Origin: Acidimicrobiia bacterium
GTDB lineage: Bacteria; Actinomycetota; Acidimicrobiia; Acidimicrobiales; Bin134
Direction of reading: 5' to 3'
Length of the DNA: 41,820 nt
Assembly: GCA_022822265.1 (NCBI GenBank)
Contig: JAJECA010000052.1
Location: forward strand, 1-41,820
Numbering within the stretch: position 1 is the first letter of the stretch; each line of letters opens with the position of its first letter. Below the pieces are notes generated by a model, which did no database searches, had not been told where the DNA came from, and saw only the letters and a list, made by a program, of their open reading frames with translations. Both the position numbers and the translations under genes were made by a program. This document shows, piece by piece, positions 11,437 to 26,096 of the stretch.

Positions 11437-14136
11437 ATGGAGACTTGGATTCGGTTTGGGCTCCTCGGCCTTGGCCCCGGGGGGATTTATGCGCTGTCGG
11501 CGCTGGGCATCGTCATCGCCTACCGCGCCTCGGGGACGCTGAACTTCGCCAGTGGCGCCATGGGGGCGCTAGCCGCTTTCTTCTTCTTCGAACTCCGTGA
11601 CGCGTACGGAATGTCCTGGCCGCTGGCGCTGGCCGCCACCTTGGGCCTGGGGGCCGCCATGGGCGCCGCGCTGCAGCTCGGCGTGCTTCGCCAGCTCCGA
11701 AACAGCTCACCGCTGACCAAGCTCATCGCCACGCTCGGCGCCCTCATCGTGTTCCAGGGCCTGGCCGTAGCCATCTGGGACGACGAGCAGCGATTGGTTC
11801 GACCGGTCATCAAGGCCGTTCAAGTCGACTTCACCGACTCCCTCAGCGTGGGGCGTGATCGCCTCATACTCCTCGGGATGGCGGTGGTGCTGGCCGCCAT
11901 CTTGGCCATCCTCTACCGGCGAACCATGTTCGGTTTGGCGACCACCGCGGTGGCCGAGAACCGACGGGCGGCGGCCAGCGTGGGATGGTCGGCCCCCCGA
12001 ATTGAGCTCTACAACTGGATGATTGGCGGCGCCCTCAGCGCCTTGGCCGGTGTGTTCCTGGCCCCCATCACCGGTTTGAAGGCCTCCACGCTGAGCCTTC
12101 TGGTGATCCCGTCGCTGGCCGCAGCCCTCATCGGGGGATTCTCCTCATTCACCCTCACCGTTGTCGGAGGGCTCATCATTGGCGTCGCCGAGTCGGAGCT
12201 GTCCCGCTACAACGGCGACATCCCCGGCATATCTCGGGCTGTCCCGTTCCTCATCATCGTGGTGGTCATGATCGCCGGCGGGCGGGCCCGCCCAACTAGG
12301 GCAGACCTGCCCACTCGCCTGCCCCGGCCCGGAACCGGGCGAATCCTGCCAACCATCGCGTTGGTAGGGGGAGCCGGAGCGATCATCTTTGCCCTGCTGG
12401 CCTCCGACAGCTGGGTGACCGCCTTGATCTTCGCGGCCATCGCCGGGCTCATGATCCTGTCCGTCGTGGTGGTCACCGGGTACGGCGGCCAACTCTCGCT
12501 CAGCCAGTGGGCATTGGCCGGCTTTGCCGCGTGGGTGGCGAGCCGCCTGGCCGTTTCGACCTCGTTGGGATTCTGGGACTCTGCCATCATCGCCGTCATC
12601 GCCACCATCCCTGTCGCGGTCATTGTGGGGCTTCCCGCGTTGCGAAGCCGAGGGGTCAACCTGGCCATTGCCACTGTCGGTTTGGCCCTGCTGATCGAGG
12701 CGATGATTCTGGGAAACGGCGACCTAACCGGAGGGTTTGATGGAACCAAGACGGTGCCGCCCAACTTCTTCGGCCTGGAGTTGGATGCGGTCATCACCCC
12801 AACTCGCTATGCCATCTTCGCCATCGTGGTAGTGGCCTTCTCGGCAATGATCGTCGCCAATGTCCGACGGAGCCGTACCGGACTGCGCCTTCTATCGGTT
12901 CGGAGCAACGAGCGCGCCGCAGCCGCCCTGGGAATCAACGTCTTCGGCGTCAAGCTCTATGCCTTTGCGCTGGCATCGGTGTTTGCCGCATTGGCCGGGG
13001 TGTTGGCGGCGTTCCAAAACCGGTTCGTGCTCTTCCAGCAATTCAACGTCTTCGGCTCGATCGAATACGTGACATATTCCGTCATCGGAGGCGTTGGCTG
13101 GGTGTTGGGAGCGATGCTGAGCGGTTTGGCCGCCCCAGATTCCATCCTGCCCAAAGTGCTGGACACGCTGTTCGACCTAGGCGACTGGATTTTCGTCTTG
13201 CTGGGCGGCGTGGTCCTGATCATCATCATGGCCGCCCCCGAGGGCATCGCCGCCCGATGGACGGCGGTAGGGCGGAGGATTCGGAAACCTCCCCCGCCTA
13301 AGCCCGCTCCGGTTATCGAGCGACGGCCCCACACTGATCTGACCATCCGCATCGAGGATCTGTGCGTGCAATTCGGGGGGGTGGTGGCCCTCGACAACGT
13401 GAGCATGGAGGTTCCTCCTCGATCCATCACCGGGTTGATCGGTCCGAATGGCGCGGGGAAAACCACTCTGCTCGACACCGTCACCGGCTTCACCAAACCA
13501 TCCTCGGGGCGCGTCTTGGCGGACGGTCAAGACATCACGTCCATGTCTCCAACCCGAAGGGCGCGCCTCGGGCTGGGACGATCGTTCCAAACTGTTGAAT
13601 TGTTCGAGGAGATGTCGGTTCGGGAGAACCTCCTCACCGCCGTCGAACGCCACGAGAACAATCGCTACCTCATCGACCCACTCAAACCAGGCCAGCTACC
13701 GGTCAGCGAGCTGATGCTGCAAGTGATCGACGATTTTAACCTTGAGCCTCACTTGGGGGCGTCTCCGTCGGAGCTGCCTCAAGGACTCCGACGCATCGTG
13801 GGCATCGCCCGGGCAATTTTGAACGAGCCCTCGGTGCTCTTTTTGGACGAGCCCGCCGCTGGCCTGGATGAGCGGGAGACCGCCGAACTCGGCCAGCTGC
13901 TCCGTCGGATTGTGGACGAGTACAAGATCGCCATCGTTCTCGTCGAACACGATGTGCCGCTGGTAATGGACATCTGCTCGCACATCGTGGTCTTGGATTT
14001 CGGCGGCATGATCGCCGAAGGCGACCCCGAGTCAATCAAGCGCGATCCAAAGGTCGTAGCCGCTTACCTGGGTAGCGAGGACGGAGAAGGCAGCGATTCA
14101 AACGGCGAACCGGCACCCGCGGGAGCAGCGGAATGA
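11437..14136 (+). CDS. Fused LivH-LivM-LivG branched-chain-type ABC transporter
   Basis: A single 899-aa protein combines three normally separate subunits. Residues ~1-285 are a LivH-type permease (GIYALSALGIVIAYRASGTLNFASGAMG). Residues ~300-620 are a LivM-type permease (VVTGYGGQLSLSQWALAGFAA, VGLPALRSRGVNLAIATVG, LGINVFGVKLYAFALAS). Residues ~640-880 are a LivG ATPase with Walker A GPNGAGKTT (669-677), Walker B SVLFLDEPAAGLDE and the switch histidine VEHD. The ABC signature is unusual, LPQGLRR (780-786) instead of LSxGQ-like. The second ATPase, LivF, overlaps its stop by 4 nt, and the lipoprotein at 20764 is the likely partner. Such systems import branched amino acids but also aromatic acids; context favours an aromatic or its acid. 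Confidence 0.9.
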   Translation: METWIRFGLLGLGPGGIYALSALGIVIAYRASGTLNFASGAMGALAAFFFFELRDAYGMSWPLALAATLGLGAAMGAALQLGVLRQLRNSSPLTKLIATLGALIVFQGLAVAIWDDEQRLVRPVIKAVQVDFTDSLSVGRDRLILLGMAVVLAAILAILYRRTMFGLATTAVAENRRAAASVGWSAPRIELYNWMIGGALSALAGVFLAPITGLKASTLSLLVIPSLAAALIGGFSSFTLTVVGGLIIGVAESELSRYNGDIPGISRAVPFLIIVVVMIAGGRARPTRADLPTRLPRPGTGRILPTIALVGGAGAIIFALLASDSWVTALIFAAIAGLMILSVVVVTGYGGQLSLSQWALAGFAAWVASRLAVSTSLGFWDSAIIAVIATIPVAVIVGLPALRSRGVNLAIATVGLALLIEAMILGNGDLTGGFDGTKTVPPNFFGLELDAVITPTRYAIFAIVVVAFSAMIVANVRRSRTGLRLLSVRSNERAAAALGINVFGVKLYAFALASVFAALAGVLAAFQNRFVLFQQFNVFGSIEYVTYSVIGGVGWVLGAMLSGLAAPDSILPKVLDTLFDLGDWIFVLLGGVVLIIIMAAPEGIAARWTAVGRRIRKPPPPKPAPVIERRPHTDLTIRIEDLCVQFGGVVALDNVSMEVPPRSITGLIGPNGAGKTTLLDTVTGFTKPSSGRVLADGQDITSMSPTRRARLGLGRSFQTVELFEEMSVRENLLTAVERHENNRYLIDPLKPGQLPVSELMLQVIDDFNLEPHLGASPSELPQGLRRIVGIARAILNEPSVLFLDEPAAGLDERETAELGQLLRRIVDEYKIAIVLVEHDVPLVMDICSHIVVLDFGGMIAEGDPESIKRDPKVVAAYLGSEDGEGSDSNGEPAPAGAAE

Positions 14137-14819
14137 ACCCGCTGCTCGCGTCCCGGGGACTGAGTGCTGGATATGGCGGCACAACCGTGGTCTGGGATGT
14201 GGACATCGACGTTCACGAGGGAGAGGTGGTTGCCCTGCTCGGCGCCAATGGCGCCGGCAAGACCACCACCCTCCTCACGCTCAGCGGCGACCATCCCGCG
14301 TCGGACGGCGAAGTGCACTTGTTTGGCCAGCCCACCAAGGCCCCGCTCTCCGTCCGGGCCTCTCGGGGGTTGGCCATGGTGCCGGAAGACCGATCGGTTT
14401 TCTCCGGGCTAACTGTTCGAGAAAACTTGCGAGTCTCGCGAAGCGACCAAGACCAGGCGCTCGAGTTGTTCCCCGAACTGGTTCCGCTCATCGACCGCAA
14501 AGCGGGTTTGCTGTCGGGAGGCGAGCAGCAGATCTTGAGCCTGGCTCGAGCCTTGTCCCGAAACCCGCGCCTTCTGCTGGCCGATGAGCTGTCCCTGGGC
14601 TTGGCCCCCAAAATCGTAAGTCGCCTCATCGAGGCGGTGAGCGACGCTGCTGTCAACCGCGGGGTGGGTGTTCTGCTGGTGGAGCAGCACGCTCGACAAG
14701 CACTGCGGGTGGCCGACCGCGTCATGGTGATGCGCCGAGGCCGCATCGTGTTGAACTTGACCGCCGAAGAGGTCGGCAAAGACCTGTCCCTGCTGGAGGA
14801 CACCTACCTGACCGGCTGA
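14133..14819 (+). CDS. livF: LivF-type ABC ATPase
   Basis: 228-aa ATPase of the branched-chain amino acid transporter class. Walker A GANGAGKTT, a canonical signature LLSGGEQQILSLARAL, Walker B LLLADELSLGL and the switch segment VLLVEQHARQAL. Its ATG overlaps the stop of the LivHMG fusion (ATGA), so the two are made together; a heterodimer with the fused LivG domain is expected, this one having the intact signature. Its last 16 bp overlap the 3' end of the convergent selenoprotein gene. Confidence 0.9.
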   Translation: MNPLLASRGLSAGYGGTTVVWDVDIDVHEGEVVALLGANGAGKTTTLLTLSGDHPASDGEVHLFGQPTKAPLSVRASRGLAMVPEDRSVFSGLTVRENLRVSRSDQDQALELFPELVPLIDRKAGLLSGGEQQILSLARALSRNPRLLLADELSLGLAPKIVSRLIEAVSDAAVNRGVGVLLVEQHARQALRVADRVMVMRRGRIVLNLTAEEVGKDLSLLEDTYLTG

Positions 14820-15796
14820 AGATCGACGGCCGCCACCTCATCGCCCCGCAGCCCGGCGGCATCGGCCAGCCGGTCCATCCGCTGGAACGTGGCCATGACC
14901 CCAGCGGCGTCCACCACCGCGGCGGGGCCAAGCTCAGCCGTCAGCTGCTCTCGGGCGTCAGCCACCTCTGCACTTCGGTCAACTGCTGCGTCGGCAAATG
15001 CGCCGAGCACGGCAGCCCCCGCCGACGGCTCGTCTTGTGAGCTGCTCGCCCGGAGCAGCCTGCCGTGGGCAATCGCTCAATAGACGCAGCCGTTGCGCTC
15101 CGAGACCCGCGAGGCCAGGAACTCGATTTGAGATCGGTCCAGTGATCGCCCCGGAGTCCATTCGATGTCGGGCACGAACTGGGTGGGTACGTAGTGCATC
15201 TCGGTGAGCGAGATGGCCATCCGCATGGCATCGGGCACCAAGCTGAGGCTGCGAATGACGTTCCCCGTCCGAGCGCCGGGAAACAGATCGGCTTCCGACT
15301 CCTCCCGAGTGGCGGGATCCAGCGTGGGTACCCAGTGCAGATTGCGGGCGGCATTGGCCGGGCGATAGCGGTCGGGAGACCCTGGCCGAGAAGCGGGCAG
15401 AGGGTCGAGGGCCATCCCGAGCACGCGGTTGAACTCGTCGATGTTGATCGCGCACGTCACCACGCCGAGCAACTCCACATAGTGGCCATCGGTGACGCCT
15501 GCATGGTGCAACTTGTCGAGCCAGGTGCGGGTCAGCCGAGGAGCATCGTTCACCACCCGGTGAACGGCGTCCACCACCACATCATCGAGAACCGACTCAG
15601 GGTCGCCGCAGCGCTCTCCCCAAGCCGGCGAAAGCGACGCCTTCCGCTCTGCGCAGCGAGGGCAGTCCCATGCTTTTCGGGCGGCAGCCACCATGGCCAC
15701 GCGCTCGTCTCCGGTCCACCACGAACCTGGACCCGCGATCTGCTCCCAAATGCGACTGTGCAGGTCGCCAAGCCCAGTGGGCAGCGGCCAGGTCAC
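14804..15796 (-). CDS. Selenoprotein 1: two-domain AhpD/CMD-like protein with in-frame TGA (Sec240)
   Basis: Read through one TGA (15077-15079) this is a 330-aa protein. Domain 1 has WTGDERVAM and a cysteine pair C45-P-R-C48 followed by ERK. Domain 2 has NVIRSLSLVPDAMRMAISL, then RVSERNGCVY-U, where U240 takes the place of the second Cys of the AhpD motif CxxCxxxH. After the TGA the same frame gives AIAHGRLLRA (H at +4, R at +9) and VVDAAGVMATFQRMDRLADAAG, ending at TAG 14804. Two paralogs at 23624 and 24840 have the TGA at the same site. The start GTG at 15796 overlaps the hydrolase stop (GTGA), so it is the last gene of the cat operon. A plain stop would remove the catalytic His and the last quarter. 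Probable thiol/selenol peroxidase or disulfide reductase; the exact reaction is unknown. Confidence 0.87.
15041..15059 (-). promoter_or_regulatory. SECIS-like hairpin of selenoprotein 1
   Basis: On the minus strand GCTGCTC-CGGGC-GAGCAGC forms a perfect 7-bp stem with a 5-nt loop. The loop starts 25 nt after the TGA (24 nt between) and has G as its second base, in line with bacterial SECIS rules. Confidence 0.7.
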
Positions 15797-16551
15797 GCCG
15801 GGAGGCGCTGGTTCAAGTAGGCGAGAGTCCTCTTCCATGAGTTAGCCGCTGCGGCCGAGTCAATCCGGTCTTCCACCAGTCCTTGCAGAAATGCGTGCCC
15901 GGCGTCGGGATAGATGTGGGCTTCGTAGTCGATGCCCTGAGCGGTGACCGCGTCGCCGAACCGATTCATGACGTCGACGCCTATGTAGTCCTCCTCGCCC
16001 CAGAAGGAGAGGATCGGCCCCGTCATTTCTTCCACAAGGTCTATGGGCCGGGGCGAGGGAACTCTCACCGGAGCGGAGATCCCCTCGGGGAACCCGTAGT
16101 AGCTCACCGTCACCAAGTCGTCTCGCTGCGCGGCCAGCACGAAGGCAAACAGCCCTCCGAGGCAGAACCCCACCACCCCGACCTGGTCGACCCCGAAGCG
16201 CTCCTTCACGAAGTCCAGAGCCGCCGACGTGTCGGCAATGCCCCGCGGCTCGTCCATGCCGCTGCGGCGCGCGAATGCCGCTTCTCTGGTGTTCTCCGCC
16301 AACTCGCCCTCGCGCCAGAAGATGTCGATGAGCAGCGTGGGGTGGCCGGCGGCGGCCAGCCGTCCTGACACCTCATGGTAGAAGGGAACCGTGCCATAGA
16401 TGTCGGTGATCAAGACGACTGGCCCGCCGGAAGGGGCGTCGTGAGGCTCGTACAGCGTGCCGGGCAGCAGGCCGTCGGGTACTGCTACGTCAACTGGGAT
16501 GCTCCGCGCTCGGGCCTCCGAGGTCGACCCGACCCAGTCTTCGTGGCACAC
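15793..16551 (-). CDS. Dienelactone hydrolase family protein
   Basis: 252-aa alpha/beta hydrolase of the dienelactone hydrolase family. Catalytic triad visible as the cysteine in GVVGFCLGGLFAF, the aspartate in FWGEEDYIGVD and the histidine in YPDAGHAFLQG. In chlorocatechol and related pathways this enzyme opens cis- or trans-dienelactone to maleylacetate, the substrate of the reductase encoded at 5247; alternatively it may act as a 3-oxoadipate enol-lactone hydrolase here, since no separate PcaD/CatD is visible. I chose GTG 16551, 4 nt after the catA stop; there is no strong ribosome-binding site, so the start is uncertain. Its stop overlaps the GTG of selenoprotein 1. Confidence 0.82.
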   Translation of the reverse strand: MCHEDWVGSTSEARARSIPVDVAVPDGLLPGTLYEPHDAPSGGPVVLITDIYGTVPFYHEVSGRLAAAGHPTLLIDIFWREGELAENTREAAFARRSGMDEPRGIADTSAALDFVKERFGVDQVGVVGFCLGGLFAFVLAAQRDDLVTVSYYGFPEGISAPVRVPSPRPIDLVEEMTGPILSFWGEEDYIGVDVMNRFGDAVTAQGIDYEAHIYPDAGHAFLQGLVEDRIDSAAAANSWKRTLAYLNQRLPA

Positions 16552-16555
16552 GCTG

Positions 16556-17356
16556 TCAGCTAGCTGGACGCAGGCGCCAGGAGTACTCGGCGGTCTGATA
16601 CGGGACCGGCACCCCATACGTTGAGGCGATATCTGGGTCCGAGCCCTCACCGATAGAGATGATGAGCTCGTCTTTCACACCGCCGACGATGTCTCCCTGG
16701 CCTTCGATGATCGAATCGCCCTCGAAGTAGATCTGGGTGGTGAGCGGGTCGTATCCCTCTTTGTTGAGTTTGAAGTGGAAGTGGGCCGGCCGCCAGGCGT
16801 GCCGTCCGATCATCAGGAGGAACTGGCCGGTCGGGCCGGCGTGGGGAATCTGATAGGGCGCAGGCCGGATGCTGGAAAACCGAAACTCGCCGTTCTCATC
16901 GGTTTCCATGATCCCCCGGAGGTTGTTCTCCGGCGGAACTGGATTGAACCCGGAATAGGTGCCGTCATTGCCCGAGTGCCACGTGTCCACGGTCACCCCG
17001 GCCAGCGGAGCGCCGTCGAGGTCGGTGATCTTGCCGGAGAAAACAATCGGATCGCCGGGCTCATCCTCGCGCATCGGCAGGCGGTACGGAGGTTCGAGCT
17101 GGCTGTGCTCCTTGTAGTAAGGGCCTTGCACTGCACCCTTTGAACCCGGCTTGTGGTCGAACGTGATTCTCTCCACTGCCGCCTCGAAGAAGACCATCAT
17201 GAACAGCGGCATCTCGCCGGAGCCTGCAAGCTTGCCCATAAACTGGACCGCCGCCATGAACTCCTGATGGTTGACGTCGTGGGCCGCCAATCGATCCTTG
17301 ATGGTCTCGATGATGTCTACGGCCACTTTCGTGACTCGGTCATTTTGCTCGGTCAT
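16556..17356 (-). CDS. catA: Intradiol ring-cleavage dioxygenase (catechol/hydroxyquinol 1,2-dioxygenase)
   Basis: 266 aa, typical for catechol 1,2-dioxygenases with the N-terminal helical dimerisation domain (residues ~1-95). Non-heme Fe(III) ligands can be placed: Tyr in VQGPYYKE, Tyr in RPAPYQIPHAGP, and the two histidines of WRPAHFHFKL. DTWHSGNDGTYSGF is the usual core motif. It cleaves a catechol between the hydroxyls to a cis,cis-muconate; whether the preferred substrate is catechol, halocatechol or hydroxyquinol cannot be read from the sequence. Start MTEQNDRV at 17356, preceded by GGGGGAA; the extra frame to 17401 is unlikely. It has its own 116-bp upstream region with a GGTATTGG element, separating it from catC. 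Confidence 0.9.
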   Translation of the reverse strand: MTEQNDRVTKVAVDIIETIKDRLAAHDVNHQEFMAAVQFMGKLAGSGEMPLFMMVFFEAAVERITFDHKPGSKGAVQGPYYKEHSQLEPPYRLPMREDEPGDPIVFSGKITDLDGAPLAGVTVDTWHSGNDGTYSGFNPVPPENNLRGIMETDENGEFRFSSIRPAPYQIPHAGPTGQFLLMIGRHAWRPAHFHFKLNKEGYDPLTTQIYFEGDSIIEGQGDIVGGVKDELIISIGEGSDPDIASTYGVPVPYQTAEYSWRLRPAS

Positions 17357-17416
17357 TTGGTTCCCCCGTTTCTGTGTGGCTGTTGGCCCAGTGATAGTCA
17401 AGCACGGTCATTCCCG

Positions 17417-17450
17417 CCAATACCTTTTGCGACCGCTCGACATACCCAAT
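17417..17450 (-). promoter_or_regulatory. Regulatory region of catA with GGTATTGG element
   Basis: Read on the minus strand, GCAAAAGGTATTGGCGGG ends 60 bp before the catA ATG. A second related element, CATATTGGGTATG, lies about 25 bp further upstream. The same GCAAnAGGTATTGG core occurs before catB, and CAAATGGTATTGGCGGG occurs before the lipoprotein gene. Confidence 0.55.
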
Positions 17451-17472
17451 ATGAATGAATACTCGCGGCACT

Positions 17473-17775
17473 TCAATCGCTTGCGTCCGGGTTGGATTCG
17501 CCGAGCCAGCTGGAGTGAGCGGCCAAAGGAGTCACGGTGATTTCGAGGTAGGGAAACAGCGGCAGCCCCGACAGAATCCTGTGGAGTTCGTCGTTGTCCT
17601 CCACGTCGAAAACGCTGTAGTTGGCCCACTCACCAACGATCCGCCACAAGCCAGTCCATTTCCCGGCCCGCTGCCACTGGTGGGAGTAGTCGCGTTCTTG
17701 CTCCAACAGCGTTGCCACGAAATCCGGGTCGAGGTCAGACGGCAGCTTCACCGTCATGTGAACGAGGTACTCCAC
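17473..17775 (-). CDS. catC: Muconolactone isomerase / chloromuconolactone dehalogenase family
   Basis: 100 aa, full family length. The protein reads EYLVHMTVKLPSDL, ERDYSHQWQRAGKWTGLWR, VGEWANYSVFDVEDNDELH, LPLFPYLEITVTPL, closely following CatC (muconolactone delta-isomerase). Members that work in halocatechol routes (ClcF) are 5-chloromuconolactone dehalogenases of the same fold, and the neighbourhood makes either plausible. The start is GTG 17775, which aligns with the usual N-terminus; an internal ATG six codons later would remove the first strand. It lies 11 nt after the catB stop, in one operon with it. Confidence 0.87.
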   Translation of the reverse strand: MEYLVHMTVKLPSDLDPDFVATLLEQERDYSHQWQRAGKWTGLWRIVGEWANYSVFDVEDNDELHRILSGLPLFPYLEITVTPLAAHSSWLGESNPDASD

Positions 17776-17786
17776 GGCCCGCCTGC

Positions 17787-18923
17787 TCAGCTGGCCGAAG
17801 AGGGGCGCTGAAACTCCGCGACCTTGTCCCAGTCAACCTCGACGCCCAAGCCTGGACCCTGGGGAACGACAAGGTCACCGCGTTCATATTCAAGCGGCTC
17901 GACCAAGATCTCATCGGCCAGCAGAAGCGGCCCGACAAGCTCGCACCCGAGGTCTAGCTGGGGAAGCGCGGCGAACAGATGGGCAGATGCCGCCGTTCCT
18001 ATGGGCGACTCCAAGGCGGTCCCTCCGTAGCAGCCCAAACCGGTTGCTGTGGCAATCTGACCCACGGCAAGGCCCCGGAGCAGCCCACCGGCCTTGGCGA
18101 CTTTCACTGCCACACCGTCGCAGGTCCGAGTCCGGGTCGCCCGTAGGGCGTCGCTCGGCGTGCAGACGGATTCGTCGGCAATCAGGGAGATCCTCGTTGC
18201 CCGAGCGGTCAGGTGCGCGAGGCCTTCCAGGTCGTCACGGCGGATCGGCTGCTCCACAAAGGACACACCGAGGGTCTCGAGCTTGTCGATTACCCACCGA
18301 GCAGTCTCCAACGGCCAAGAAGCGTTGGGATCGACCAGGTAGTCCACGTCGGGACCGAGCGCGTCGATGACCGCGGCCACTCGCTCCACATCCTCGTCGG
18401 GATTGACCGCCCCCATCTTCAGCTTCAGCGCGGTATGGCCTTGATCGAATCGCTCCTGTACCTCCTGCACAATGGATTCGATGTCGGCCGCGCCCACCGC
18501 CCACCGCACCGGGATGCGATCGCGGGCCGGACCACCGCCGAGCAAGGTTGAGACCGGCAGGCCGAGTTGGCGGCCCAAGGCATCAAATAGCGCCATCTCG
18601 ACTGCCGCTTTGGCGAAGTGATTGTCGTAGGCCACCGCATCGAGGTGTTGGACCACGGTGGGAAGGGAAACCGCGCCGAGTTCCTGCAATGCCGGTAGGA
18701 AGTGGTGCTCGATCATGGCCTGCTGGGTTTCGATGGCCTCGCCGCTCCACCACGGTCCTCCGGGGGACACCCCTTCGCCTATTCCGATGGCACCCTCGCC
18801 GGTTTCCAATTTCACAATCAGGTAGGCCTGCTGATTGATCTCCAGCCCGGCAAAGCGGTGCGGGCGAATGCTGGGGACATCGATGATCACGGTTGTGATG
18901 TCCTTGACGGTCAGGGTCTGCAT
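17787..18923 (-). CDS. catB: Muconate cycloisomerase (enolase superfamily)
   Basis: 378 aa. Muconate-lactonizing enzyme of the enolase superfamily: TALKLKMG with the catalytic KxK pair, metal ligands in DYLVDPNASW (Asp), FVEQPI (Glu) and LIADESV (Asp), and the second lysine in GVAVKVAKAGG. Substrate lid residues near the N-terminus (RPHRFAGLEINQQAYLIVKL in parts) fit the CatB/TfdD group. It converts cis,cis-muconate to muconolactone, or chloromuconate to dienelactone. ATG 18923 has GGGAGACC upstream; the frame open to 19325 runs through the promoter region and is rejected. Divergent from the first Rieske gene, with several GGTATTGG elements between. Confidence 0.9.
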   Translation of the reverse strand: MQTLTVKDITTVIIDVPSIRPHRFAGLEINQQAYLIVKLETGEGAIGIGEGVSPGGPWWSGEAIETQQAMIEHHFLPALQELGAVSLPTVVQHLDAVAYDNHFAKAAVEMALFDALGRQLGLPVSTLLGGGPARDRIPVRWAVGAADIESIVQEVQERFDQGHTALKLKMGAVNPDEDVERVAAVIDALGPDVDYLVDPNASWPLETARWVIDKLETLGVSFVEQPIRRDDLEGLAHLTARATRISLIADESVCTPSDALRATRTRTCDGVAVKVAKAGGLLRGLAVGQIATATGLGCYGGTALESPIGTAASAHLFAALPQLDLGCELVGPLLLADEILVEPLEYERGDLVVPQGPGLGVEVDWDKVAEFQRPSSAS

Positions 18924-19001
18924 GTGCTCGGTCTCCCTGCCAGCCTTTCGAATTTCCGAAGCCGGGCGCCGCTGAGCATCACACAGCACAGGCACCGAAC
19001 T

Positions 19002-19065
19002 CCAATACCTATTGCGGACCCACCCAATACCGAATTGGAATTGATCATTCCATTGGCCGGTATTG
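19002..19065. promoter_or_regulatory. Divergent operator region catB / Rieske oxygenase
   Basis: CCAATACC at 19002-19009 and again at 19024-19031 (22 bp apart, two helical turns), the latter within CCAATACCGAATTGG; then GGTATTGA at 19059-19066 in the opposite direction. CAATACCG at 19025 and CGGTATTG at 19058 form a large imperfect palindrome centred near 19045, with an inner GGAAT-TGATC-ATTCC. This is a credible multi-site LysR-type control region serving both directions. Confidence 0.6.
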
Positions 19066-19169
19066 ACGCGTATGGCGGTGGGCCTACACTGTGAATTACA
19101 GCCCGGATGCACCGGCTGTTGTCGTCGGCGCAACCTGGGTCCCATATCACTTCTCAGGGAATTGGTCCC

Positions 19170-20582
19170 ATGACATTGGCACCCGATACCACCACCAAAC
19201 GGACTCCCACAGTTCCCTCGGTGGGACTCAGGCGGCGAATCGCAGAGGTAACCCGCTGGCAGACCAGGGAAATGCTTCTGGGTGTTCTGACGCGGTTGGG
19301 CAGATGGGGCGCCAAATTCGACCAACCCCGCCGGCAGCCCTTGCGCTCGGGTTCAATCAAGCTCTATCGCTGGCACAAGAAGCCATACGGCTCGGAAGAC
19401 AAGCCCATGTCGCTTCTGGAGATCCCCTGGGACTACGTGGAGGAGAATCAGCACAAGACCCCCTTCCTCGGTCTGCGGGAGTACTGGTATCCGGCCTTGA
19501 TTTCCAAGGAACTTCGCAACAACCAGCCCAAAGCGATCACGCTCTTGGGCGACGACCTGGTGTTCTTCCGAGACGGCGAAGGTAAACCCCGGGCCCTGGA
19601 GAATCACTGCCCCCACCGCGGCGCCTTTTTGTCACTGGGTCAGGTCGGGGTGTATGAGCCCGGCACCATCACCTGCCGCTACCACGGCATGACCTTCGAC
19701 GGCGACGGCCAGTGTGTTGCCTACCTCACCGACGGACCCGACAGTTCGATTCCGGGCCGAATCACCGCTCGTTCATTCCCGGTCGAGGAGCACAACAGCG
19801 TCATCTTCATCTACATGGGAGACCGCGAGCCCGAACCTCTGATGGATTCCGTGCCCCATGCCGACACGGTGCTAAGCGGTGTCGGCGAGTACTTTCTCGA
19901 TCGGGTCCCATTGCCTTACAGCTACTTGAACCTGCTGGACAACACCGTCGACCTCACCCATCCGGGCATCCTTCACCGCAATTGCCTTCAGTTCGCCGGC
20001 CAGGCCCCCGAGGTGGGGTCGGTCAGCACCAAGCGGCTTGACGACGGCGGCCTGTACGCGTATCTGACCGAGACTCCCAACCATCCCGGAAGACTGAACT
20101 TGGTGGACCAGACGTGGTACCTGCCCAACATGATCTATGCCCCCGTCGGCCGCAGCCCGGTATTGGCGGGCGGCGGATGGGGCTGGTTCGTCCCTGTCGA
20201 CATAGGCAACCACAACTTCTGGTTCATCGCTCGATTGACGAACCCCGAGCGTCCGGAGAGGAAGCTGCTCACCAAGACGAAGAAGAGCTTGGCCTCATTT
20301 GCCATGGGCCGAATCGCAGGGCGCGACGTCTTCTGGCCGGGGAGCGCCAAGTCATGCCTCGATGGCGGCGACACCCCCATTCAGACATCGCAGGGCCGCA
20401 TCGTGCGGTGGGATAAGGAAAAGCTCACCAGCGCCGACCGGGGAACCGTCCAAGTCCGACGGATCATGCAAGAGGCCCATCAAGCCGAGATCGCCGAGCG
20501 GGCTGCCAAAGGCATCCCCGAGCGGCGCATTCAACGACCATATGCGCCCATGGAGCGGGAAGCGCCGGTCAACGTTCGCTGA
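19170..20582 (+). CDS. Rieske non-heme iron oxygenase, alpha subunit (1)
   Basis: 470-aa ring-hydroxylating oxygenase. Rieske centre CPHR (ENHCPHRGAFLSLGQ) and CRYHG (TITCRYHGMTFDG); mononuclear iron site in LDNTVDLTHPGILHRN (N-x2-D-x2-H-x4-H). An unusual N-terminal extension of about 90 residues precedes the Rieske domain and is shared with the paralog at 22206 (GSIKLYRWHKKPYGS, IPWDYVEENQ). It probably hydroxylates or demethylates an aromatic substrate; no ferredoxin or reductase gene is in the window. The start at ATG 19170 has CAGGGA 9 nt upstream. Downstream of a GGTATTGA element in the catB divergent region. Confidence 0.88.
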   Translation: MTLAPDTTTKRTPTVPSVGLRRRIAEVTRWQTREMLLGVLTRLGRWGAKFDQPRRQPLRSGSIKLYRWHKKPYGSEDKPMSLLEIPWDYVEENQHKTPFLGLREYWYPALISKELRNNQPKAITLLGDDLVFFRDGEGKPRALENHCPHRGAFLSLGQVGVYEPGTITCRYHGMTFDGDGQCVAYLTDGPDSSIPGRITARSFPVEEHNSVIFIYMGDREPEPLMDSVPHADTVLSGVGEYFLDRVPLPYSYLNLLDNTVDLTHPGILHRNCLQFAGQAPEVGSVSTKRLDDGGLYAYLTETPNHPGRLNLVDQTWYLPNMIYAPVGRSPVLAGGGWGWFVPVDIGNHNFWFIARLTNPERPERKLLTKTKKSLASFAMGRIAGRDVFWPGSAKSCLDGGDTPIQTSQGRIVRWDKEKLTSADRGTVQVRRIMQEAHQAEIAERAAKGIPERRIQRPYAPMEREAPVNVR

Positions 20583-20648
20583 CTCTCCGGGCCGCGCATC
20601 GCTCAGGCCCCTTCTCATACCAGTTGGGCATGGCGTAACGCCTCAAAT

Positions 20649-20656
20649 GGTATTGG
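20649..20656 (+). promoter_or_regulatory. GGTATTGG element before the lipoprotein gene
   Basis: CAAATGGTATTGGCGGG (20645-20661) differs at one position from the catA element CAAAAGGTATTGGCGGG on the minus strand. It lies 107 bp before the lipoprotein start. Confidence 0.5.
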
Positions 20657-20763
20657 CGGGTTTGCCTTGGCCGATGTGATACTCGGCTTTGACTGAAGTG
20701 GGGCGGGCTGCGATTCCCACGATTCGCAGGCGGCCGCAATCTGGACCAGGGGAGACCGCGGAT

Positions 20764-22182
20764 ATGTGGACACGACGGCACCGGACCAAGCATCTGCTCA
20801 TCGCATTTCTTGCTGTGATCGCCATGCTGGCGGCTTCTTGCGGCAACGATGACGACGGAGACAGCGGAGTTTCCGGCGAAGCAGAGCCCGAGCAGACCGC
20901 GGCGCCGGCCGACGAGCCCGAACCCGAACCGGCCCCCGCAGAAGAGCCGGCCGACGAGCCCGCGTCCGAACCGGCCGATGAACCCGAACCGGTCGACGAG
21001 CCTGAACCGGCCGATGAACCCGAGCCAGCCGATGAGCCTGAACCCGAACCTGAGGCCACGGAAGCGCCTCCTCCTCCCGAGCCGACCGGACCGCCGATCA
21101 AGCTGATGGCATCGGGCTCGATAAGCGGCCCGGTGGGCATTCCTGAGGTACAGGATGCCGCCGAGGGCGCCGTCGCGGCCATCAACGCCGCCGGTGGCGT
21201 AAATGGTCGCCCCATCGAGCTGCTGATCTGTGACGACGAATCCAACCCGAATCTGTCGGTCGAATGTGGGCGCAAGGCGGTAGAAGAGGGAGTTGTGGCC
21301 GTTGTCGGCGCCACCAGCGGATTCGGCAACGAGTACATGGGCGTGCTTCAAGATGCCGGTATCCCCTCCATCGGCAATTTGTCCCGCAGCCAACTGGAAC
21401 TCTCATCCCCGCTGTCATTCCCGATCGGGGGCGGCATTGCCGTTGCTTTGGCCGCGATTGGCTATGGCCTCGGTGAAAATGGTGCCACCACCGTTCACGC
21501 AGCCATCCCCGCCACCGGCAACGCCGCCGCTCTGGCCGGGATCTTCTTGAATGCCGGTCTTGCCCCCTATGGCCTCAGCCTCAAGGGTCAAACGGGGTTC
21601 CCCCCGGATGCCGCTGATATCACCCCATTGGTGCAGGCCACCCTGGAGGGCGGGACCGACGGTGTGGCCTTCATCATGACCCCCGACCTGATCAACAAGT
21701 ATCTGCTAGCCCTGCCCAATCTGGGTGCCGACCCCCTCTTGGTGTCCTCACCGCTGGTCTACTCCCAGACGAACTTCGACATCGTGGGCGATGCCGCCGA
21801 AGGCCTCATCCTGGCGGGACAGATCCTGCCCTCCACGTACACCGAGAATCCCGGCATACAGCGGTTCCACGATGACTTAGACGCCATCGGGTCTGATGCC
21901 GCCCGCAGCGAGTTGGCGATAAATACCTGGGCGTCGTATCACATCGTGGCCGACATCATGAGGACCATGGACCCGGAGGCCATCGACTCGGCATCACTGG
22001 TTGCCGCCATGGAGGCCGCCGGGGAAATCCACTTCGATCCGCTACCACCGTTCAACTGGGCAGAGCCGATCATGGCGTATCCACCGGCTTCCCGAACGTT
22101 CAGCGACTATGTGGTCCTCTCCGAAGTTCGCAATGGCCAGATCGTAGCCCTGACCGGAGAATACGTAAGCCTCTCGCGATGA
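20764..22182 (+). CDS. ABC importer substrate-binding lipoprotein (LivK-type)
   Basis: 472 aa. Lipoprotein signal: a basic start (MWTRRHRTKH), a hydrophobic core and a lipobox LAASC, so the mature protein is anchored on the outer face of the membrane. Residues ~35-125 form an acidic Pro/Glu-rich tether (repeated EPADEPEP units). The remainder is a type I periplasmic-binding fold: IKLMASGSISGPVGIPEV, GVNGRPIELLICDDESNP, AVVGATSGFGNEY. Probable partner of the LivHMG fusion and LivF encoded at 11437-14819. It sits between the two Rieske genes, which suggests that it binds their substrate. ATG 20764 starts the signal peptide; longer frames are not needed. Confidence 0.88.
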   Translation: MWTRRHRTKHLLIAFLAVIAMLAASCGNDDDGDSGVSGEAEPEQTAAPADEPEPEPAPAEEPADEPASEPADEPEPVDEPEPADEPEPADEPEPEPEATEAPPPPEPTGPPIKLMASGSISGPVGIPEVQDAAEGAVAAINAAGGVNGRPIELLICDDESNPNLSVECGRKAVEEGVVAVVGATSGFGNEYMGVLQDAGIPSIGNLSRSQLELSSPLSFPIGGGIAVALAAIGYGLGENGATTVHAAIPATGNAAALAGIFLNAGLAPYGLSLKGQTGFPPDAADITPLVQATLEGGTDGVAFIMTPDLINKYLLALPNLGADPLLVSSPLVYSQTNFDIVGDAAEGLILAGQILPSTYTENPGIQRFHDDLDAIGSDAARSELAINTWASYHIVADIMRTMDPEAIDSASLVAAMEAAGEIHFDPLPPFNWAEPIMAYPPASRTFSDYVVLSEVRNGQIVALTGEYVSLSR

Positions 22183-22205
22183 TCCTCTGACGACCTGGAG
22201 GCGTC

Positions 22206-23627
22206 ATGTCAACAGCTGAAGCCCACCGGACTCAGGAAGAATTCGGGGACACCGCCGAGCGGCACGCCGCCGCGTTGCCCTCAATTCCCGCCCCAGCCCG
22301 CATCCGTCAAGTCCTCGCCCAGCAATTCACAGAGTGGGGTGTCAGCTTTCTGAGCCGATTCCCCAGCCTGAAGCCGCTGGTGGACAAGCCCCGGACCCAG
22401 CCGATGAAGTCGGGGGCCTACCGCCTCTACCAATGGTGGAAGAGCCCCTATGGCGTACCAGAAAAGCCGGCCTCGGTGGGCGAAATCCCCTGGGACTACG
22501 TCGAGGAGAGCCAGGACAAGATTCCGTTCCAAGGGCTGCGGGAGTACTGGTACCCGGCCATTGAGTCGAAGGACTTGATGCACAACGAGCTGAAGCCGGT
22601 GACCTTGCTGGGCGACAACATCGTGTTGTTCCGAGATGCCGAGGGTCGGGCTCGAGCTCTCCAGAACCGCTGCCCCCATCGAGGACCGCTGTTGTCGCTG
22701 GGACAAGTCGGCGTGTGGGCGCCGGGAACCCTCACCTGCCGCTACCACGGCATGACCTTTGATGGAGACGGCGAGTGCGTCGCTTTTTTGGCTGACGGTC
22801 CCAACAGCAACGCGTGCGGAAAAGTCCGAGCCCGGTCGTACCCGGTAGAGGAGATCAGGGGTGTCGTGCTCGTCTACATGGGAGATAGAGAGCCCCCGTC
22901 CTTCCTGGAGACCTTTCCCCATGCCCAAACCGTGTTCGGCCAAAAGCTCCTCATGGTCCAACAGCTCGACCTGCCCTATAGCCACCTCAACATGTTGGAT
23001 AACACCGTGGACATGACCCATGTGGGCTGCCTCCACCGGACGTGCTCGCTGTTCAATGGACAGAAGCCGGCCGGTGACTTGGAGTTCGAGGAGATCTTCG
23101 ACGGCCAGGGCCTCCACGTGTGGTACACGGAGCCCGATGAACACCCGGGGACGTTCAGCATCGACCACATCGAGTGGCTGCTGCCCAATCTCGTGTACCA
23201 CGCTCCCGGGGATCTGGCTGGACCCCTCGATGAGGGTTACTTCTGGTTCGTTCCCCGCGACGTGGGCAGCTTCACCGGATGGCTGATCATGGGGAAGACG
23301 GACTTCGGCACCCCCATGCGCAACACGTTGGCCGCCCAGGCCATCAATCTCATGATGGGGCGCTTCTTCGGCCGCATATACCCGTGGCCGGGCAGCATCA
23401 CCAGCTGCATCTACGGGGGCGACGCCGTTTTGCAAGCCGCCCAAGGGCGGGTGGCCCGTTGGGATATGGACCGGTTAGCTCGAACTGATCGCCCGGTGGT
23501 CAAGATCCGCCGGATGCTCCAGGCGGCCCACCAAGAAGAGGTGGCTGAGCGCCAAGCGCGCGACGAGCAGAAGGTCCACCGGATCCGCCGCCCCGAACCG
23601 GCCGCGGAGGAGCCGGCGACCACATGA
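22206..23627 (+). CDS. Rieske non-heme iron oxygenase, alpha subunit (2)
   Basis: 473 aa, clearly paralogous to the oxygenase at 19170 over its whole length. Rieske ligands CPHR (QNRCPHRGPLLSLGQ) and CRYHG; catalytic iron motif LDNTVDMTHVGCLHR. The same ~95-residue N-terminal extension is present (KSGAYRLYQWWKSPYGV, EIPWDYVEES). The two enzymes may be subunits of one hetero-oligomer or act on successive intermediates; sequence alone does not tell. Its stop overlaps the start of selenoprotein 2 (ATGA), so the redox-active selenoprotein is translationally coupled to this oxygenase. Confidence 0.88.
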   Translation: MSTAEAHRTQEEFGDTAERHAAALPSIPAPARIRQVLAQQFTEWGVSFLSRFPSLKPLVDKPRTQPMKSGAYRLYQWWKSPYGVPEKPASVGEIPWDYVEESQDKIPFQGLREYWYPAIESKDLMHNELKPVTLLGDNIVLFRDAEGRARALQNRCPHRGPLLSLGQVGVWAPGTLTCRYHGMTFDGDGECVAFLADGPNSNACGKVRARSYPVEEIRGVVLVYMGDREPPSFLETFPHAQTVFGQKLLMVQQLDLPYSHLNMLDNTVDMTHVGCLHRTCSLFNGQKPAGDLEFEEIFDGQGLHVWYTEPDEHPGTFSIDHIEWLLPNLVYHAPGDLAGPLDEGYFWFVPRDVGSFTGWLIMGKTDFGTPMRNTLAAQAINLMMGRFFGRIYPWPGSITSCIYGGDAVLQAAQGRVARWDMDRLARTDRPVVKIRRMLQAAHQEEVAERQARDEQKVHRIRRPEPAAEEPATT

Positions 23628-24826
23628 GCATTGCGACGCCCGACCACACCACCGATATCGATGTCCGCGACGACCTGATCGACGCCCACAGGTACTACTG
23701 GGACCATCTCTCGAAGCCTGGGACGTGGTGGTCGGGCGCCGAACGGGTGGCCATCGCCCGCGAGACCCGCTTGGCCCGCCAGTGTGCCCTCTGCTTGCGT
23801 CGGAAAGCGGCATTGTCGCCCTACGGGATTGACGGCGTACACGATGATTCTGGCAGCGGGCTAGCCCCCGGAGTGATAGACGCCGCCCACCGGATCGCCA
23901 CCGACGCCGGTCGCCTGACGAAGTCGTGGTTTGATTCGGTTATCGATGACCAGTTCACCGATGCGCACTACGTGGAGCTTTTGGGGATCGTGTCTTCGGT
24001 GATGTCGATTGACACCATCCACATCATTTTGGGCCTTCCCCTGGATCCGCTCCCCGAGCCGTTACCCGGGGAGCCGTCTCGCCAGCATCCCGCTGGGCTC
24101 GAGGACATCGGCGGCTGGGTACCGGCGATAAATCCAAGCAAGGCATCCTCCAGCGAAAGGGACCTGTTCGCCACCCGGCGGGCCAGCAATGTGTCCAAGT
24201 CGCTGAGCCTGGTGCCCGAGGAACACCGATCGATGAAGCGGGTCTTGGCCGCTCAGTATCTCCCCATCGAACTGGTGCCCTCACCGGGCGAGAACGGGGG
24301 GCGGGCCATCAGCAGAGCGCTGATGGAACTGGTCGGAGCGCGGACTTCAGCCATCAACGAGTGCTTCTATTGAACGAACGGCCATTCGTTCCTGTTCCGT
24401 GAGAACAGCAAGCTCGACGGCACACCAGGCGACCCGGTCGCCGCCACCGACCGGACCCGAGACAGCGGTGTTGTTGGTGGCAGCGAACTGCTCGACCTGG
24501 CCGACGCCGCTTTGACCAATCCCGATCAAATGCCCGAAGCCCGGGCTGCCGTCATCCACCGCTTGGGCGAGGCCGCGCTGGTGGACGCCGCCGGTGTGAT
24601 CGGTGCCTTCCAGCGGATGAACCGGCTGGCCGACGCAACTGGTTTGCCGGTCGACAAACCCCTGGCCGTGCTGACCGCGGGCCTGGACGACGAACTCGGC
24701 ATCCAGGGGTTTTACACCGCACAGCACTCCAAGAGGCTGCCATGGGTGGTGCGCAAGCTGGGTCAGATAATGCGTCCATTCGGGAGCGTAATGATGAAGG
24801 TGCTTGCCCCTAAGAACGACGTCTGA
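23624..24826 (+). CDS. Selenoprotein 2: two-domain AhpD/CMD-like protein with in-frame TGA (Sec250)
   Basis: 400 aa when the TGA at 24371-24373 is read as selenocysteine. Domain 1: WWSGAERVAIARETR, C54-A-L-C57, LRRKAALSPYG. Domain 2: NVSKSLSLVPEEHRS, then SAINECFY-U with U250 at the second redox position of CxxC, and TNGHSFLFR (H +4, R +9). The C-terminus continues with ALVDAAGVIGAFQRMNRLADATGLP, a classic CMD-family helix, and a basic tail. The stop TGA at 24824 is not followed by homologous sequence in frame. The N-terminal ORF would otherwise end right before the essential residues, and the C-terminal ORF has no ribosome-binding site of its own. Coupled to Rieske oxygenase 2 by ATGA overlap. 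Confidence 0.9.
24392..24408 (+). promoter_or_regulatory. SECIS-like hairpin of selenoprotein 2
   Basis: CTGTTC-CGTGA-GAACAG: a perfect 6-bp stem with a 5-nt loop, 24 nt between the TGA and the loop, G at loop position 2. Geometry is the same as in selenoprotein 1 although the stem sequence differs. Confidence 0.7.
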
Positions 24827-24839
24827 TTGCTCCCGTGCG

Positions 24840-26087
24840 ATGAGGTCAGAGACAGCGCCGGCCTTTTTCCTCGACGATTCTCCCTATCCAATCCGAGAAG
24901 GGGTCCTCGAAGCGTACCGCGAGCTGTGGCAGCGCTTCTCCGAACCGGGAGACTCCTGGACCGGAGCCCAGCGCATCGCCATCGCCCAGGAGAGCCGAGA
25001 TGCCAAAGACTGCGATCTCTGCGTCCGACGCAAACAGCAGCTCAGCCCCTATGGCCTGAATGAGAGCCACGTCCTATCCGACAACGGGAAGCTCATCGGG
25101 GCGGCCGCGGTGGACTGCGTCCACCGCATCGTCACCGACCCTGCCCGTCTGAGCCGCCGAATGGTGGAGGACGCCCGCAGCTCCGGGTTGTCCGATGAGC
25201 AGATCGTGGAGCTGATCGGGATCACCTGCGTGACGATGGCCATCGACGAGCACTACCGGGCCCTCGGCTTGCCGCTGGCGCCGCTACCCGAGCCAGTCCC
25301 CGGTCCTCCTCGCGGCCGCCGTATAGCTGAGGATCGGCAGGAAATCGGTACTGCTTACGTGCCGATGTTGGCCCGAGACAGCGCGGTGGGCGACGAAGCC
25401 GATCTGTGGTCTGGCCGTCGCACCGCCATTCACATCATCCGGGCCCTCAGCCTGGTGCCCGACGCGCTCCGGGACCTAACGATCCTCAGCAATGAGCAGT
25501 ACCTCACGCTGGAAGAGGCCCCTGCGTTCGCCCTCCAACCAGAGGGCCGGGCCATTGACCGCCTTCAGATGGAATTGCTTGCCACCCGCGTCTCACAGGT
25601 CAACGAGTGCTTCTATTGAGCGGTCGGCCATGCCACGGCGTTCCGTGTGGCCGCCGACATGAACAAAGCCGATGCCGATGTATCGCTGCTGAACCAGGCC
25701 GAGAGCGGCCTCCCGCAGGAAGATGGCCAAGAAGTGGCCTATGCCGCCGAATTGGCCGCCTTCGCCGAAGCCCTCGCCGGTGGCGACACCGGGGCACTGG
25801 CCGCGGCACGAGCCGAACTCGATGCCGTGGCGGGCCGCGCCGTGACGGCCGACGCGGCGGCCATTGCCGCCAATTTCCAGTGCATGACCCGAGTGGCCGA
25901 CGCCACCGGTATCCCCTTGGACACTCCCATGATGGCGGCCAGCCAGTCGGTGCGAGACAAGCTGGATTTCCACCAATACGCATCCGCGACGAACAGCAAG
26001 CCGATCCCCCGGCCACTGCGACCCGTTGCTCGATTGCTGGGCAAAGCGATCCCGGTCATCTTGAAACGGGTGCGCCTGAAGCTGTGA
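24840..26087 (+). CDS. Selenoprotein 3: two-domain AhpD/CMD-like protein with in-frame TGA (Sec260)
   Basis: 415 aa with the TGA at 25617-25619 read as selenocysteine. Domain 1: SWTGAQRIAIAQESR, C58-D-L-C61, VRRKQQLSPYG. Domain 2: AIHIIRALSLVPDALRD, RVSQVNECFY-U (U260), AVGHATAFR (H +4, R +9), then AAAIAANFQCMTRVADATGIP and a basic C-terminal tail (RLLGKAIPVILKRVRLKL). Start taken at ATG 24840, 13 nt after the stop of selenoprotein 2; the frame is open to 24804. Full-length collinearity with selenoproteins 1 and 2 shows gene duplication with the TGA retained. The frame ends at TGA 26085, 9 nt before the MetE-like gene. Confidence 0.9.
25625..25653 (+). promoter_or_regulatory. SECIS-like hairpin of selenoprotein 3
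   Basis: Outer stem CGGCCA/TGGCCG, a 3-nt bulge (TGC), inner stem CACGG/CCGTG and loop CGTT. There are 19 nt between the TGA and the loop, and G is at loop position 2. The strongest of the three hairpins (11 bp in total). Confidence 0.72.
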
Positions 26088-26096
26088 GGGATAGTG

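What the first reader, a model, noticed from the sequence alone, without database searches (positions are those of the whole stretch)
14804..26087. Three paralogous selenoproteins: AhpD/CMD-like enzymes with TGA at the second redox cysteine
In all three genes one TGA interrupts the frame at exactly the same place: (N)(E/G)C-x-Y-TGA-x3-H-x4-R. In AhpD-family proteins this position is the second Cys of CxxCxxxH. After the TGA each frame stays open for 90-156 codons and encodes homologous sequence (DAAGVxxxFQRMxRLADAxG). Random mutation would not place identical nonsense codons at the active-site Cys of three diverged paralogs in two operons. Selenocysteine is the simple explanation. Multi-copy two-domain Sec-containing AhpD proteins in a Rieske/cat island look undescribed to me, though AhpD-like selenoproteins in other bacteria have been reported.
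Basis: partly seen in the sequence, partly recalled or inferred. Interest (0 to 1): 0.96.

Follow-up and report, generated by a model that had tools for sequence, protein, structure and literature searches.

The report
Three selenocysteine-containing double-AhpD redox enzymes
A bacterium, probably related to sponge symbionts, carries three genes with a UGA codon at the redox active site, in a stretch of aromatic-degradation genes; they belong to an already named selenoprotein family, very likely read UGA as selenocysteine, and are predicted to make two-domain enzymes, shaped like the animal stress protein sestrin, that would probably destroy peroxides.

The parts
14804..15838 (-). Copy A, two-domain AhpD-related selenoprotein, 344 aa with Sec; frame overlaps the end of the dienelactone-hydrolase-like gene
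   Evidence: (NF041238 340.4 bits, cut-off 175)
15077..15079 (-). In-frame TGA (Sec254) of copy A
15041..15059 (-). Predicted SECIS hairpin of copy A (nt 21-39 counted from U of UGA)
22206..23627 (+). Rieske-domain oxygenase gene 2; its stop TGA overlaps the ATG of copy B (ATGA)
23624..24826 (+). Copy B, two-domain AhpD-related selenoprotein, 400 aa with Sec
   Evidence: (410.6 bits)
24371..24373 (+). In-frame TGA (Sec250) of copy B
24392..24408 (+). Predicted SECIS hairpin of copy B, with the paired U-A change at nt 25/35
24840..26087 (+). Copy C, two-domain AhpD-related selenoprotein, 415 aa with Sec
   Evidence: 378 bits
25617..25619 (+). In-frame TGA (Sec260) of copy C
25626..25652 (+). 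Hairpin after the TGA of copy C; the family stem is broken at one pair (U-C at nt 25/35) and a longer alternative fold is predicted
19107..20582 (+). Rieske-domain oxygenase gene 1, 47% identical to gene 2
15793..16650 (-). Dienelactone-hydrolase family gene
16556..17401 (-). Intradiol (chloro)catechol dioxygenase-like gene (under both NCBIfam cut-offs)
17473..17775 (-). Muconolactone isomerase-like gene (Pfam over cut-off, NCBIfam 123.5 against 130.6)
17787..19325 (-). Muconate/chloromuconate cycloisomerase (over cut-off; matched part is residues 141-507 of the listed frame)

Best explanation
The three genes are UGA-interrupted members of the known family NF041238; their UGA very likely encodes selenocysteine, and they are predicted to make fused double-AhpD enzymes, shaped like sestrin, that would probably reduce peroxides. 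Shown: the UGA at the same active-site position, the family match, selA/selB/selD/tRNA-Sec in the genome, and a conserved RNA hairpin after UGA. Inferred mechanism: SelB with Sec-tRNA reads UGA by way of that hairpin. In the second domain Glu235, Cys247, Tyr249, Sec250 and His254 (copy B) match in order and spacing the AhpD proton relay (Glu36, Cys48, Tyr50, Cys51, His55 of PA0269). The selenolate would attack a hydroperoxide, Cys247 would close a selenenyl-sulfide bond, and a dithiol would reopen it. The first-domain pair Cys54/Cys57 lines up with Cys247/Sec250 but has Lys for His, so it may be the built-in thiol relay rather than a second peroxidase site; this is untested. In the window copy B overlaps the stop of a Rieske oxygenase, so local removal of peroxide from uncoupled oxygenase turnover is a plausible job there; across the loci examined there is no fixed partner gene.
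Confidence: 0.8

Rival explanations
1. The Sec enzymes are reductive dehalogenases (or decarboxylase-dehalogenases) of halogenated aromatic catabolites, working like the AhpD-fold debrominase Bmp8 with selenium as the attacking atom.
Against: Several AhpD chains match better than Bmp8. Family members elsewhere mostly lack such neighbours (Rieske in 2 of 60 adjacent same-strand genes in named genomes). The L158 dioxygenase directly beside the Sec gene leans to catechol (186 against 157). No halide-specific gene was identified, and the muconolactone isomerase-like gene points to ordinary catechol.
Confidence: 0.1
2. The proteins do not act on peroxide themselves but pass electrons, as mycobacterial AhpD does for AhpC, to a peroxiredoxin encoded elsewhere. 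This is not exclusive of Sec and the relay, only of direct peroxide reduction.
For: Same relay residues as AhpD. The genome has a match to the peroxiredoxin C-terminal domain PF10417 on contig 64.
Against: That match lies on another contig. The CxxC of the first domain could already serve as a built-in donor (inference).
Confidence: 0.15
3. UGA is a real stop: the genes encode about 250-residue proteins and the downstream frames are decaying remnants.
For: Predicted proteins end there (118 of 120 listed). Folding energies after UGA are unremarkable.
Against: Downstream frames are homologous, carry the relay His and are kept in 133 TGA genes with a fixed hairpin and fixed codon choice; full-length Cys versions exist; Sec machinery is present.
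Confidence: 0.03
4. UGA is read as another amino acid through a changed code or plain readthrough.
For: Frames continue past UGA.
Against: 12 of 14 checked window genes end in TGA and 11 have none inside; the site aligns with Cys in relatives; tRNA-Sec with anticodon TCA is present.
Confidence: 0.02

Closest known systems
NCBIfam NF041238 AhpD_rel_CFYUT, alkylhydroperoxidase-related (seleno)protein; 'hypothetical protein 1' of the Sargasso Sea selenoproteome
   Same: All three copies exceed its cut-off; CxxU motif, Sec and length agree. NCBI uses this name for a Candidatus Poriferisocius protein 84% identical to A.
   Different: A has CVYUA and a shorter tail; three copies in one genome; adjacent Rieske and (chloro)catechol-type genes.
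AhpD and peroxidase-related AhpD-core proteins (6k40, 2prr, 2oyo, 3c1l, PA0269)
   Same: Second domain has the same predicted fold and the Glu-Cys-Tyr-Cys/Sec-His relay with the spacing of PA0269.
   Different: Those are single-domain Cys proteins; here two domains are fused and Sec replaces the second Cys.
Sestrin2 (5dj4, 5t0n) and bacterial Cys-type fused AhpDs likened to sestrins in PMC11429811
   Different: No sequence match; the relay site is in the second domain, not the first; Sec instead of Cys; the second domain keeps the catalytic helix-turn-helix that sestrin has lost.
Bmp8 debrominase (6ohi)
   Different: Single domain, bromopyrrole pathway; not among the sequence hits.

Membership tests
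NF041238 (alkylhydroperoxidase-related (seleno)protein) | Score above the curated cut-off of 175 bits | tested here: met
   A 340.4, B 410.6, C 378
NF041238 (alkylhydroperoxidase-related (seleno)protein) | CxxU active site, or Cys in its place in Cys versions | tested here: met
   Cys versions P0008, P0020, P0238 and L091; P0008, P0020 and L091 also exceed the cut-off
Bacterial selenoprotein | In-frame UGA aligned with Cys in relatives | tested here: met
Bacterial selenoprotein | selA, selB, selD and tRNA-Sec in the genome | tested here: met
Bacterial selenoprotein | SECIS hairpin directly after UGA with G in a small apical loop | tested here: met
   for the family and for A and B; C has a mismatched stem and an alternative fold; criterion from PMC1088965 passages
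Bacterial selenoprotein | Se in the purified full-length protein | not testable with these tools
   needs 75Se labelling or mass spectrometry
AhpD-type alkylhydroperoxidase | Glu, Cys, His/Tyr, Cys, His proton relay with AhpD spacing | tested here: met
   B: 235, 247, 249, Sec250, 254; PA0269: 36, 48, 50, 51, 55; Sec for the second Cys
AhpD-type alkylhydroperoxidase | Peroxidase or AhpC-reducing activity | not testable with these tools
   no assay
Gamma-carboxymuconolactone decarboxylase | CMD-family site without CxxC and proton relay | tested here: not met
   CxxU and the relay are present; PMC3141380 passages say gamma-CMD members lack them. The broad Pfam CMD model is reached by A and C, not B
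Sestrin | Second domain has lost the catalytic helix-turn-helix and bears an acidic hinge (DDYDY) | tested here: not met
   the second domain keeps CxYU-x3-H between two predicted helices; sestrin definition from PMC11429811 passages
Sestrin | Fused pair of AhpD-like domains | tested here: met
   (prediction only)

The most novel reading that the evidence does not exclude
The three enzymes are selenium-dependent reductive dehalogenases: sestrin-shaped double-AhpD proteins whose Sec strips halogen from halogenated catechol-pathway compounds in likely sponge-associated bacteria, a bacterial counterpart of the Sec deiodinases built on a different fold, with the CxxC of the first domain as built-in reductant.
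Probability: 0.08. Interest if true: 0.85.

Novelty: new member of a known kind. Interest (0 to 1): 0.4.

Why it matters
The family was listed as a selenoprotein in 2005 with only a possible redox function suggested (PMC1088965 passages). The data here give it a structure prediction, a complete AhpD-type relay with Sec at a defined position, and a second CxxC in one large subfamily. Since Sec usually takes the place of the attacking Cys (recalled), it suggests which Cys of the AhpD pair attacks, a point where the sestrin work points to the other Cys. It also shows that in the protein database searched nearly all listed members stop at the active site (118 of 120 and 27 of 30), so their catalytic half is missing there.

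Tried and rejected
A conserved operon partner was sought and not found: among 60 adjacent same-strand complete genes in named-genome loci no Pfam family occurs more than 3 times and Rieske occurs twice, in the near relative L101 and in L158; among 33 in class loci acetyl-CoA synthetase-like domains occur 6 times. In all-against-all clustering of 1,556 frames the most widespread neighbour cluster reached 13 of 79 named-genome loci.

A lineage-wide Rieske link was tested and not found: the Rieske gene 2 family is found only in the own genome among 296 class genomes (E 1e-60) and 396 phylum genomes (E 1e-40), and not in the plasmid collection (E 1e-40). The protein search does list relatives under names such as Haloechinothrix and Amycolatopsis, so the genome samples missed some; whether a family gene lies beside those was not looked at.

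A recent triplication was considered; the trees put A with a Cys protein (P0020), B and C each with a partner from L101 in separate places, but one clade is rejected only marginally (p-AU 0.047, quick tree); the B+C test did not finish.

Thermodynamic folding alone and Rfam gave no SECIS signal; the signal came from comparison.

Distance between the two redox pairs in the model could not be measured: the tools return no coordinates.

Absence in print: for a Sec protein likened to sestrin I searched (154 papers, 20 listed); for the family, (32, 20 listed; 101, 20 listed). NF041238 by name occurs in one held paper, the 2026 review. The search for Poriferisocius listed 5 of 4,004 papers, none of them holding that word; that its members live in sponges is recalled.
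Full report
Observation. Three genes, A (14804-15838 minus), B (23624-24826 plus) and C (24840-26087 plus), each hold one in-frame TGA at C-x-Y-TGA-x3-H-x4-R. TGA is otherwise the ordinary stop in this window: 12 of 14 genes checked end in it, and only these three have one inside. A and C are 35% identical over 358 columns spanning the TGA.

Identity. All three exceed the cut-off of NCBIfam NF041238, AhpD_rel_CFYUT, 'alkylhydroperoxidase-related (seleno)protein' (340.4, 410.6, 378 bits against 175), and they are the only three matches in the genome, each with one TGA. A 2026 review table equates NF041238 with 'hypothetical protein 1' of the Sargasso Sea (PMC13188914, passages), which the 2005 survey listed as a CXXU selenoprotein with a possible redox function (PMC1088965, passages). 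NCBI names a Candidatus Poriferisocius protein, 84% identical to A over 69% of it, by the same title. So the kind is known; these are new members.

Host. L101, from an Acidimicrobiia assembly, is 85% identical in DNA over 7,986 bases of the window, and named relatives close to A (84%) and to Rieske gene 1 (87%) are from Candidatus Poriferisocius, a genus of Acidimicrobiia. That the host is a sponge associate is inferred and partly recalled.

Sec machinery. The 3.48 Mb, 94.7% complete genome has selB and selA over cut-off, selD over cut-off with a TGA at HGAGUAGK, and tRNA-Sec with anticodon TCA. selA, selB and the tRNA lie on one contig.

Conservation of the UGA. A scan of named genomes with a single pattern in the first domain, so independent of the Sec codon, found 213 relatives; the best 80 gave 79 loci. 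They hold 83 family genes, all with TGA, in Gammaproteobacteria, Myxococcota and other 'deltaproteobacteria', Alphaproteobacteria, Binatota, Acidobacteriota, Verrucomicrobiota and one Acidimicrobiia genome (L101), among others. In the window's own class 45 of 296 genomes exceed the cut-off; of 48 loci taken there (47 over the cut-off, one under), 47 have TGA and one TGC. Of the 120 listed of 268 protein-database relatives of B, 118 stop exactly at CxY and two are full-length with Cys. Of 30 listed for A, 4 of them shared with that list, 27 stop there, two are full-length with Cys (P0020 CTYC, P0238 CFYC) and one ends otherwise. Thus TGA exchanges with Cys, rarely. tRNA-Sec is found in 41 of 44 class genomes with a TGA member and 160 of 252 others (Fisher p 3.6e-5, not corrected for kinship); the Cys-version genome G247 has no hit.

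The RNA signal. Single-sequence folding is no better than shuffles. Comparison is decisive: in 133 TGA genes the four pairs between nt 24-27 and 33-36 (UGA = 1-3) form in 132, 131, 132 and 133. The codons that encode them are frozen: Leu9 is CTC in 125 of 128, Ser12 AGC or AGT in 127 of 127, and Arg10 is never CGC in 113, against 33.5%, 36% and 37% for those codons elsewhere in the same genes. The genes are related, so these are not independent counts. Copy B and its L101 partner carry a paired change (U-A for C-G at 25/35). Copy C and its partner carry U-C there and fold differently, so decoding of C may be weaker. In the Cys version L091 two of the four stem pairs are broken (sequence).

Active sites. 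In B, Glu235, Cys247, Tyr249, Sec250, His254 copy the spacing of PA0269 Glu36, Cys48, Tyr50, Cys51, His55 and of mycobacterial AhpD Glu118, Cys130, His132, Cys133, His137 (PMC3141380, passages). Sec is at the second Cys. The first domain has C-x2-C-x3-K/R/Q in 83 of 83 named-genome genes and 3 of 3 window genes; in class loci a CxxC stands there in 1 of 48, followed by Thr. The scan was seeded with such sequences, so 83 of 83 is partly selection. The window copies therefore belong to the double-motif subfamily, seen here mostly in Proteobacteria and Myxococcota, unlike 47 of the 48 genes taken from their own class. With the trees this suggests arrival by horizontal transfer, in more than one event or as an old set; p-AU 0.047 against one clade is marginal.

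Context. Beside the genes lie two Rieske oxygenases, an intradiol dioxygenase, a muconolactone isomerase-like gene, a muconate/chloromuconate cycloisomerase over cut-off and a dienelactone-hydrolase family gene; further off are a thiolase whose best models are 3-oxoadipyl-CoA thiolases (under cut-off), two CoA-transferase subunits and an iron-type dehydrogenase. B overlaps the stop of Rieske gene 2 by four bases. One unrelated genome, Halieaceae bacterium APA_bin_75 (L158), has a Rieske gene 49% identical 30 nt upstream of its Sec gene, a dioxygenase directly downstream, and a second, chlorocatechol-like dioxygenase (336.9 against a cut-off of 359), a cycloisomerase and a LysR regulator nearby; its Sec protein is 38% identical to B and 35% to A. 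Three equal contig lengths in the protein tables (18,761; 321,437; 3,431,372) hint at further contigs with both a Rieske relative and a family member, one of them the Cys version P0020; this is inference. The other loci examined mostly lack such neighbours.

Mechanism. Most likely the enzyme is a Sec-based hydroperoxidase: selenolate attacks the peroxide, Cys247 closes a selenenyl-sulfide, and a dithiol, possibly Cys54/Cys57, reopens it. Everything after 'Sec at the AhpD site' is inferred. Peroxide from uncoupled Rieske turnover is established chemistry (recalled) and would explain the overlap of B with Rieske gene 2. The Bmp8 match and halocatechol-type genes leave a dehalogenase role open.

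Verdict. A correct and well-supported reading of a known selenoprotein family; the fold, the second redox motif, the RNA constraint measured over 133 genes and the recurring island are the additions.

Noticed in passing
G000 C11:115856-116800 (L022): The genome's selD is itself UGA-containing, at the HGAGUAGK site.
   Followed up: yes
class genomes f29/g65 (about 1 Mb), e.g. G005, G073, G077: Many very small genomes of the class carry a short (about 190-200 aa) AhpD-like match below the NF041238 cut-off with one TGA, probably another AhpD-like selenoprotein family.
   Followed up: no
G109:C88:33818-34384 and G086:C35:20700-21110: Weak AhpD-like matches with two TGA codons inside the frame; matches in G062, G156, G168 and G243 also list TAA or TAG.
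   Followed up: no
window 26094-27182 plus: 362-aa frame directly after copy C without Pfam or NCBIfam match; a 389-aa frame follows copy C in L101 too, without NCBIfam match.
   Followed up: partly
L017:16132-17670 minus (contig 60, near selA): 513-aa protein whose first 197 residues match molybdenum hydroxylase iron-sulfur subunits, best the selenium-dependent xanthine dehydrogenase model, below cut-off.
   Followed up: no
window 11437-14136 plus: Single 899-aa frame joining two branched-chain-type permease stretches and an ATPase domain.
   Followed up: no
L165, L132, L128: Gammaproteobacterial loci with two family genes within about 4 kb of each other, so multiple copies are not unique to the window.
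   Followed up: partly
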